Source: Triplophysa rosa (Eukaryota > Chordata > Actinopteri > Cypriniformes > Nemacheilidae). Taken from it: a DNA stretch of 64,000 nt. Below, one piece after another: positions 48,602-51,600 of this stretch. The translations under genes were made by a program, and so were the position numbers. The stretch spans positions 9,201,080 to 9,265,079 of the forward strand of contig NC_079905.1 of the NCBI RefSeq assembly GCF_024868665.1, read 5' to 3'. The first letter of the stretch is position 1; each line of letters begins with the position of its first letter. The notes beneath the pieces were generated by a model, which saw nothing but the letters and a program-made list of their open reading frames with translations, was not told the origin of the DNA and did not search any database.

Positions 48602-51600
48602 TCAGTACCAGCACTGGTTCTGATTCATGTTACAGCCATTTTTGCAGCTACTTGTCTGGTAGGAGACCCCCAACATATTGAGTGATGGAGGTGGAGAGGG
48701 GGCCAAAGAGTTGCAGTATATTTGAACTCCAGCAGGGGGCACCAAACACTGTGTCTGTCCACCGTGCCCTGACACCAGCATTGTAGATGGATAAGACTGC
48801 TGCTGTTGCGGTACCTTATTAGAACAAAATATATATTTATATAATACAGAACACTTAATTGACTTGTATCATCCATAAATAATATGATGCGCATGAACTG
48901 GAGTCTCTGCATACCTGATATGAGGATACAGATGGGTAAGGTCCCATAATCTGACTTCCTATTGTGCCGGGGCAGCCTTGTTGGTTAGATATAGTCATAG
49001 GCGAATATCCTGTTAAGAGAGATGTAATTTTTCATATGTCCAATGATGAGTTATGAACTCAAAATCATTAAAAGCCTCAATTTTACAATTGCACGTTGTA
49101 AATTAAATGATATACATTTATACAATTATATACAAAACTTACTTTACATTTATATATTTACACGTGTTATTTTCACTGATAACAGACAGGCTTAAACGGT
49201 TTGGTATTTGAGGGCTGATGTGAATAGCAGAAGAAGAGACCGCTTCACTGTGAGACCACTAGCACCATCTCTTACAGTGTAACGGCTCCCTCTCCTACTA
49301 CTGTTACTGTTACTGTTATATCAATGTATGAGGGACTTGAAAAGCTTCATGTGTACCTGTTTGTGCGCTGTAACTGGCTGCACCGTATTGTTGAGACACA
49401 CTGGGACATTGAATAGGGTAACTGTATACTGAAACCTAAGAGGGGAGAACAGAGTTGACTCATAATTAGACGAACGACACTGTAATCTCATTGGCAGGCC
49501 TGGGGATTGTATTGGTTTTTGGATATCAACATGTTAACGTGTGTTAATGGAGTTGAAAATAGTAAACAAGTAGTTTTTATATGGCATTTATGTACTGTAA
49601 CAATACCTGATTGCTCTGCTGACTGGGGGTCTGAGGTGGCGGGACTGTGGGTGTTGCCAGTGCCATAGCAGGGCTCATGTAACTGTCTGAATGATGAGAT
49701 GGAGCGTAACCGTGGTGAGGCGGAGGATAGCTGTGTGTGGGCGGAGCCCCTTGCATGTAGTAGGAGGTCATTTCTGGAACATCTCCCGAAGACTGGCGAC
49801 TCAAGGTCATGTGACCAAACTTAGAGACGATGTCTTCCCTCTGAAAACCACAAATATGCTTTTAATGACATACGTCAGTAAATACACCACTTCACAAGAT
49901 GTAAATACTGGTCCAGAAGCACTTCTGGTTTCGGTTTTTATGTATTCATTTTTTAAATAATTTTTATTTCTTTTTTATTATTCTATGGTATGTACTGTGT
50001 ATACTGGATTTATTGCATATTTCCGTGTTTTGCTTGGGCACAACAAATTATAAAATATCTTTGCATATAAATAAACCATATACTATTAAAAAAAGCCACA
50101 CTTGTTTATTACTTACAGTCTGTTCTATTGGATGTTGCTGAGCGGTAGAAACATTTAACTGCTGGGGTGGAAGGTACGTCATAGAAGAGTACTGAACCTA
50201 AATCAGAAGAGGACAGGAGGTAAATCTGCATCCAAATATTTCACATGTACTTGTAATGCATTAATCATTGTGTTTCAATGTAATTTACACATATTTAATA
50301 TATTCATTTATACTATACACAGCATACTACATACTAAATTTGCAAGTATGCTACTGTAAATACACCCACAGTCTAAACACTATTAATCGATGCAACCGAA
50401 AATGAATAACATCCTTAAAACAGAATCATTTAGTATTCTTTGTACTTAACAACTAAACTGTCTAATATATACAGTACCTGTGTGACACCATGGCTTGCTA
50501 TTGGCTGCTGCTGGGGTAGAGGGGGTGGGGCTTGGGACTGCACTTGGCCACTGATTGGCTTCTGACTTACAGGTGGGTTGTAAACAGCTGGAGTTCCATC
50601 AGGATTCAGGAAGGGCTGCCCTAAAACACAGATAAGAGAAATGACTGTGGTCTTACATTTTGTACCAATGAGTTCATATTTAAATCCATAATGCATGTCT
50701 ATGTTCTGTGTGTGTATACCTGTGTGTGGGTTTAATAAAACACTCCCAGGAGGTATCGATGACTCAGCAGGCACGATGACATAAGCAGGGCTGCTGTTGG
50801 GTGCAGCGTAGCACAACGCTGACTCAGATACTATTTGATTGATCAGACAAGGTAACAGCAGATCAGACATCAACATTGTGTGTGTGTACTTTTGGTAACT
50901 AGATTGACATGGACATGAGGGGTGTTATTTTTGCACCTGGTTTGCACAGTTTGGAGCTGCTGTCTGAGCCTGTATATGTAGATTTAGATGTCCATGTCGG
51001 GCTGTCAGAATCTGTGCTGCTCCAAGGTCGAGGGTCATTCCAATGAGAGTCCAGCTCAAAACTGCTCTGCCTGCTGCCAGACAGCCGACCGGAACCATCC
51101 CTGTTACCCCTGCAAAAATAAATTCATAGGTTTATTTTTTTGTAAAAAAAACAATTTCATGAAGCATACTTGTCTAAAAACTGGTACCTTATTTAAAAGG
51201 GTCATATGTCACAGCTAAAACGAATATTATGGTTTGTTTTAGATGTAATGCAACATGTATACACGATTTAAGGTTAAAAAACGCTGTATTTTCCACATAC
51301 CGTGCATGTTTGTATCTCCTCTTTGCCCCGCCTCTCTGAAACACGCAGATTTTTAACAAATCTCATTGCTCTGAAAAGTGAGGTTTGCTATGATTGGCCA
51401 GTTAACCAGTGCGTAGTGATTGGTCGAATACTGCAAGCGTGTGACGGAAATGTAACGCCTCTTACCATATTTGGAACATCAGGTTCCAAATCAATTGTGC
51501 TGACAGGTACACCCACCTTACTTGCTTATACATTTGGGCGGTCTTAGTCAAATCATACCACGAACTGACGTAGATTTGTGGGGGTGTGGTTACACGAGGC

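What the first reader, a model, noticed from the sequence alone, without database searches (positions are those of the whole stretch)
49225..49305. mir-128 gene in arpp21 intron with a changed base at position 11 of the mature strand
The hairpin is unmistakably mir-128 and sits where mammals keep MIR128-2. The mature arm matches the canonical sequence at positions 1-10 and 12-20, but position 11 (genomic 49243) is G instead of C and position 21 is C. The seed is intact, so ordinary targeting should persist. Position 11 lies beside the Argonaute slicing point and affects extended pairing. The 5' arm still pairs there through a T-G wobble. Such a change in a deeply conserved microRNA would be unusual unless this is a duplicate copy relieved of constraint.
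Basis: partly seen in the sequence, partly recalled or inferred. Interest (0 to 1): 0.85.

Follow-up and report, generated by a model that had tools for sequence, protein, structure and literature searches.

The report
MicroRNA-128 copy with changed middle base
In the blind cave loach Triplophysa rosa, one of the three copies found of a very conserved brain microRNA has a single changed letter in its middle, which leaves its main targeting part intact but closes a small gap in the hairpin; it is probably a mild natural variant of a known gene.

Summary
A full mir-128 hairpin lies on the minus strand at 49303-49221 (Rfam RF00649, 69.4 bits, cut-off 49). Mature base 11 (49243) is G instead of C and base 21 is C instead of U; the seed is intact. 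The hairpin sits in a 347-nt intron of an intact arpp21 gene. The window is from Triplophysa rosa, a cave loach, not a cyprinid: two protein stretches match that species at 100%, on a contig of the same length. A genome search found three mir-128 genes. The other two, one in an r3hdm1-like gene and one without a recognised host, have C at base 11, and so does the zebrafish arpp21 copy as read from a morpholino. Most likely a working miR-128 with the same seed targets. Expression, frequency, age and assembly error could not be tested.

The parts
49221..49303 (-). mir-128 precursor hairpin (mir-128-2 type, arpp21 intron)
   Evidence: RF00649 69.4 bits, model 1-83/83; fold -41.9 kcal/mol, z -6.2
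49232..49253 (-). mature miR-128-3p arm (22 nt by homology), seed intact, G at base 11 and C at base 21
   Evidence: position-by-position comparison; ends are by homology, no reads
49243..49243 (-). mature base 11: G here, C in the Rfam consensus and in the two other genomic copies
49268..49290 (-). 5' arm (star strand by homology); its U at 49282 (hairpin base 22) faces base 11
49010..49356 (-). arpp21 intron that holds the hairpin (347 nt, gt...ag); the hairpin starts 53 nt after the 5' splice site
   Evidence: spliced gene model
48602..54739 (-). arpp21 coding region, 19 exons; my model starts at 54673 (678 aa), the T. rosa record at 54739 (700 aa)
   Evidence: last exon set right in 18; 678 of 678 aa identical to P0001; 54739 start; R3H and SUZ domains on P0001

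Best explanation
[quoted passage not shown] It is transcribed with arpp21, spliced, and cut by Drosha and Dicer like any mir-128 (inferred). Bases 2-8 and the supplementary bases 13-16 are unchanged (shown by sequence), so ordinary targeting should be kept (inferred). The change turns a mostly unpaired base into a G-U wobble and tightens hairpin and star duplex by about 4 kcal/mol (computed). The likely effect is a small change in duplex unwinding or star-strand removal and loss of pairing at base 11 with any rare extensively paired target (inferred). The change was probably tolerated because base 11 matters little for seed targets and because two other genes still encode canonical miR-128 (inferred).
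For: Full-length RF00649 match and fold. Seed and bases 12-20 intact. Intact host gene identical to the T. rosa protein. Three mir-128 loci found, the two others with C at base 11. G11 pairs with U at P 1.00; C11 unpaired at 0.70 in the same hairpin and 0.74 in the Rfam consensus. MFE -41.9 against -38.0, star duplex -20.9 against -17.0. Zebrafish miR-128-2 (arpp21) morpholino is complementary to C at base 11 (PMC10415179, passages). No branch acceleration in arpp21.
Against: No expression data; one assembly only, so sequencing error or a single allele is not excluded. This copy has the lowest family score of the three (69.4 against 80.2 and 76.6), mildly in favour of relaxation, and base 21 is a second change in the mature arm. 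The gap at base 11 is not absolute: C11 on contig C25 is only 42% unpaired, and in the C6 hairpin a G at base 11 would not pair at all, so the effect depends on the facing U.
Confidence: 0.72

Rival explanations
1. Early decay: because two other genes encode canonical miR-128, this copy has lost constraint, perhaps helped by drift in a small cave population, and is on its way to loss.
For: Three copies found, two canonical. Lowest family score of the three and two changes in the mature arm. Relaxed selection is reported for pigmentation genes in T. rosa (PMC12343024, abstract and section 12). Vertebrate microRNA duplicates on the less retained subgenomes collect more mature-strand changes (PMC8789304, passages and section 7; the paper's main text does not name mir-128).
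Against: Hairpin intact, with the lowest folding energy of the three natural hairpins (-41.9 against -36.4 and -36.9); seed and 5' arm core kept; host gene open and not accelerated. The cave-fish paper also reports lower median Ka and Ks in T. rosa than in the surface fish. In mouse the Arpp21 gene makes about 80% of mature miR-128 (PMC5964322, passages), so a free loss is not expected.
Confidence: 0.15
2. Assembly error or a rare allele: the true or usual base is C.
For: One assembly, no reads on hand. The two other copies in the genome and the Rfam consensus have C.
Against: Window proteins match the T. rosa records letter for letter over 678 and 400 aa, though these records lie on a contig of the same length and so are not independent. 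No second haplotype copy of this locus was returned by the genome search.
Confidence: 0.09
3. A selected isoform: G11 was favoured for altered duplex handling or new extended targets, perhaps in cave life.
For: The substitution strengthens the hairpin: C11A and C11G tie at -3.9 kcal/mol, behind only C12G and A9U of 66 possible single changes in the mature arm.
Against: No site complementary to bases 1-16 of the G11 form was found besides the gene itself. No expression, population or relative data.
Confidence: 0.04

Closest known systems
mir-128-2 in the ARPP21 intron of vertebrates (Rfam RF00649)
   Same: Family, seed, hairpin, sense orientation in an arpp21 intron; neighbours DCLK3 and PDCD6IP as recalled for human
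   Different: Base 11 G instead of C, base 21 C instead of U; base 11 now paired in the hairpin
mir-128-1 in R3HDM1 (here probably C25:12679588-12679669)
   Same: Same family, same intronic arrangement, same seed
   Different: Canonical mature strand with C at base 11; different host gene, loop and 5' arm
Third T. rosa mir-128 (C6:117067-117148)
   Same: Same family, canonical mature strand; hairpin resembles the C25 copy
   Different: No arpp21-family coding exon recognised in 39.8 kb around it, of which 5 kb read N; one weak match in another query set

Membership tests
mir-128 (RF00649) | Covariance model score above the curated cut-off over the whole model | tested here: met
   69.4 bits against 49, positions 1-83 of 83
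mir-128 (RF00649) | Seed UCACAGUG (bases 1-8) at the expected place on the 3' arm | tested here: met
mir-128 (RF00649) | Stable hairpin with the mature strand on the 3' arm | tested here: met
   -41.9 kcal/mol, z -6.2
mir-128 (RF00649) | Sense orientation in an intron of ARPP21 or R3HDM1 | tested here: met
   intron 49356-49010 of arpp21
mir-128 (RF00649) | Mature strand identical to canonical miR-128-3p (usual, not defining) | tested here: not met
   differs at bases 11 and 21
bona fide expressed microRNA | Small-RNA reads with a fixed 5' end from both arms | not testable with these tools
   no small-RNA data on hand

The most novel reading that the evidence does not exclude
T. rosa, or a wider loach lineage, has a naturally selected miR-128 isoform: because arpp21 is the main source of miR-128 in mouse, much of this fish's brain miR-128 may carry G11, with a tighter duplex and altered star-strand removal or turnover by highly complementary RNAs, giving a natural experiment on the central base of a conserved microRNA.
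Probability: 0.04. Interest if true: 0.6.

Novelty: new variant of a known kind. Interest (0 to 1): 0.3.

Why it matters
A change in the mature strand of a microRNA this conserved is expected to be uncommon (recalled; no rate was measured here), and the two unchanged sister genes in the same genome make the comparison clean. If G11 miR-128 is expressed, reads from arpp21 and from the other genes can be told apart by one base, which would let the output of arpp21 mir-128, and the effect of base 11 on loading, stability and turnover, be measured in one animal. The seed is unchanged, so the expected biological effect is small.

Tried and rejected
Exact search of viral contigs and genome contigs with the mature pattern open at base 11: 0 stretches in each, as expected for a fish gene. 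Paper searches for the G11 sequence in DNA and RNA letters, long and short: 0 papers; supplements were not searched. Papers holding Triplophysa and miR-128: 1, a thermal-stress review seen only in the listing. Papers holding Triplophysa and microRNA: 36, of which 25 were listed and none read for sequences. Further listings gave other papers named here; PMC4159003 and PMC6356880 (passages) only list miR-128 as expressed in fish brain, heart or other tissue, and PMC5004112 does not name it. I recalled that fish Ago2 slices poorly; (77 papers, 15 listed) showed no title or abstract start saying so, and PMC10772731 (passages) stresses Ago2 slicing in vertebrates, so this is not used.

Target co-evolution: the 16-base complement with the base-11 place open was returned at five places, three being the mir-128 genes themselves (antisense). 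The two others, both on contig C11, carry A and G there, not the C that would pair G11; the one with G would pair the canonical form. Neither stretch gave any Rfam match at E up to 1. About 1.3 chance matches would be expected by simple arithmetic; the tool's reversed-pattern control gave 0. The tool warns that no match does not prove rarity.

Self-regulation: the mouse paper names a conserved miR-128 site in the Arpp21 3'UTR; no 7- or 8-base seed site lies on the minus strand at 44001-48601. A C6 match to the last arpp21 exon (E 5e-4) did not appear, which used seven full-length proteins at E 1e-3, and is left open. The name r3hdm1 for the C25 gene rests on exon similarity, on the zebrafish arrangement in PMC10415179 and on the C7 gene being closer to PDB 1whr, KIAA1002 (that KIAA1002 is R3HDM2 is recalled), not on a named database hit. 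On checking, I lowered the novel case from 0.06 to 0.04, to agree with the matching rival; no other odds changed.

Full report
What is there. On the minus strand at 49303-49221 lies a complete mir-128 hairpin: Rfam RF00649, 69.4 bits with a cut-off of 49, model positions 1-83 of 83, E 2.1e-15. The plus strand gives only 28.9 bits, below the cut-off. The minus strand folds at -41.9 kcal/mol, z -6.2, with 0 of 200 shuffles as good. The mature arm is 49253-49232 by homology. It matches canonical miR-128 at bases 1-10 and 12-20 and differs at base 11 (49243, G for C) and base 21 (49233, C for U). No other place in the 64-kb window, on either strand, comes within five mismatches of the 21-base mature strand.

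Where it lies. A spliced gene model on the minus strand, 19 exons with gt/ag borders, gives a 678-residue protein. It is identical over all 678 residues to cAMP-regulated phosphoprotein 21 of Triplophysa rosa (P0001), whose record starts 22 residues earlier and carries R3H and SUZ domains. The hairpin lies in the 347-nt intron 49356-49010, 53 nt after the 5' splice site. The first 400 residues of the DCLK3-like reading frame at 33.6-35.2 kb are also 100% T. rosa (P0121); the next-best named species in that list is Misgurnus anguillicaudatus at 75%. Both records lie on a contig of 23,910,009 bases, and the window's contig C16 has that same length. The species is therefore T. rosa, family Nemacheilidae, a depigmented, eyeless cave fish (PMC12343024, abstract). 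It belongs to the order Cypriniformes but is not a cyprinid. An ALIX domain at about 62.1 kb marks a PDCD6IP-like gene (the gene name is recalled).

The other copies. A search of the whole genome (684.8 Mb, 1038 contigs) with RF00649 returned four rows: three above the cut-off and one antisense row below it, on C6. The genes are C6:117067-117148 (80.2 bits), C25:12679588-12679669 (76.6 bits) and this one (69.4 bits). Both other genes have the canonical mature strand with C at base 11. The search scores only the best candidates (57 of 32,606), so a diverged fourth copy is not excluded. The C25 gene lies between exons of an arpp21-family gene, probably r3hdm1. A related gene on C7, closer to PDB 1whr, has no mir-128. 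Around the C6 copy no arpp21-family exon was found in 39.8 kb with seven full-length queries at E 1e-3, though 5 kb there read N and one weak match to a last exon was seen with another query set. In zebrafish, r3hdm1 and arpp21 host miR-128-1 and miR-128-2, and the miR-128-2 morpholino is complementary to a mature strand with C at base 11 (PMC10415179, passages). The change thus probably arose on the loach side; its age is unknown.

What the change does to the hairpin. With C at base 11 the base is unpaired with probability 0.70 in this hairpin and 0.74 in the Rfam consensus, 0.65 in the C6 copy and 0.42 in the C25 copy. With G here it pairs with U on the 5' arm at probability 1.00. The energy moves from -38.0 to -41.9 kcal/mol, and the mature-star duplex from -17.0 to -20.9. 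A at this place would give the same energy. The effect needs the facing U: put into the C25 hairpin, G11 would pair (0.96), put into the C6 hairpin it would not. [quoted passage not shown] This is inference; base 9 stays unpaired.

What it does to targeting. The seed and bases 13-16 are unchanged, so ordinary targets should be kept; that seed and supplementary pairing carry most targeting is recalled knowledge. Only extensively paired sites would feel base 11. The 16-base complement with the base-11 place left open was returned at five places: the three genes themselves (antisense) and two on contig C11 that carry A or G, not C, there. Neither of the two gave an Rfam match. No site paired through bases 1-16 with the G11 form was found except its own gene; one of the two would suit the canonical form. 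About 1.3 chance matches are expected, so neither is evidence of a target.

Is it decaying? The hairpin is intact and the host is open. In a tree of 16 arpp21 proteins, chosen from the 120 listed, the T. rosa end branch is 0.078, equal to the median. Against this, it has the lowest family score of the three and two mature-arm changes. In mouse, Arpp21 makes about 80% of mature miR-128 (PMC5964322, passages); if that holds here, G11 would be the main form, which argues against a neglected copy but cannot be tested.

Verdict. It is a member of the mir-128 family with a probably mild substitution seen in this copy alone of three. The interpretation of a relieved duplicate is partly supported by the two canonical copies. 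The open points are expression, spread among fish and species, and the chance of an assembly error. The interest is modest. The G11 sequence was found in no paper of the held library (supplements not searched).

Noticed in passing
G000 C6:117067-117148 (L001): A third mir-128 gene with canonical mature strand and no recognised arpp21-family coding host nearby, perhaps a microRNA that outlived its duplicated host gene.
   Followed up: partly
44001-48601: No miR-128 7- or 8-base seed site on the arpp21 strand downstream of the stop codon, although the mouse paper reports a conserved site in the Arpp21 3'UTR.
   Followed up: partly
46563-48126: A DNA-transposon-like element with 210-nt inverted repeats, 99% complementary and 1144 nt apart, about 475 nt downstream of the arpp21 stop codon; it looks recent and may cut the 3'UTR.
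   Followed up: partly
45361-45777: Remnant of a Tc1/mariner-like transposase reading frame (judged by eye) near a palindromic repeat at 45113-45180.
   Followed up: no
40815-40868 and 55763-55816: Two UnaL2 LINE 3' ends on the minus strand (Rfam RF00436).
   Followed up: no
33586-35184: The neighbouring kinase is named DCLK1 in the T. rosa record, but most named relatives in the list are DCLK3, so the record's name is probably wrong.
   Followed up: partly
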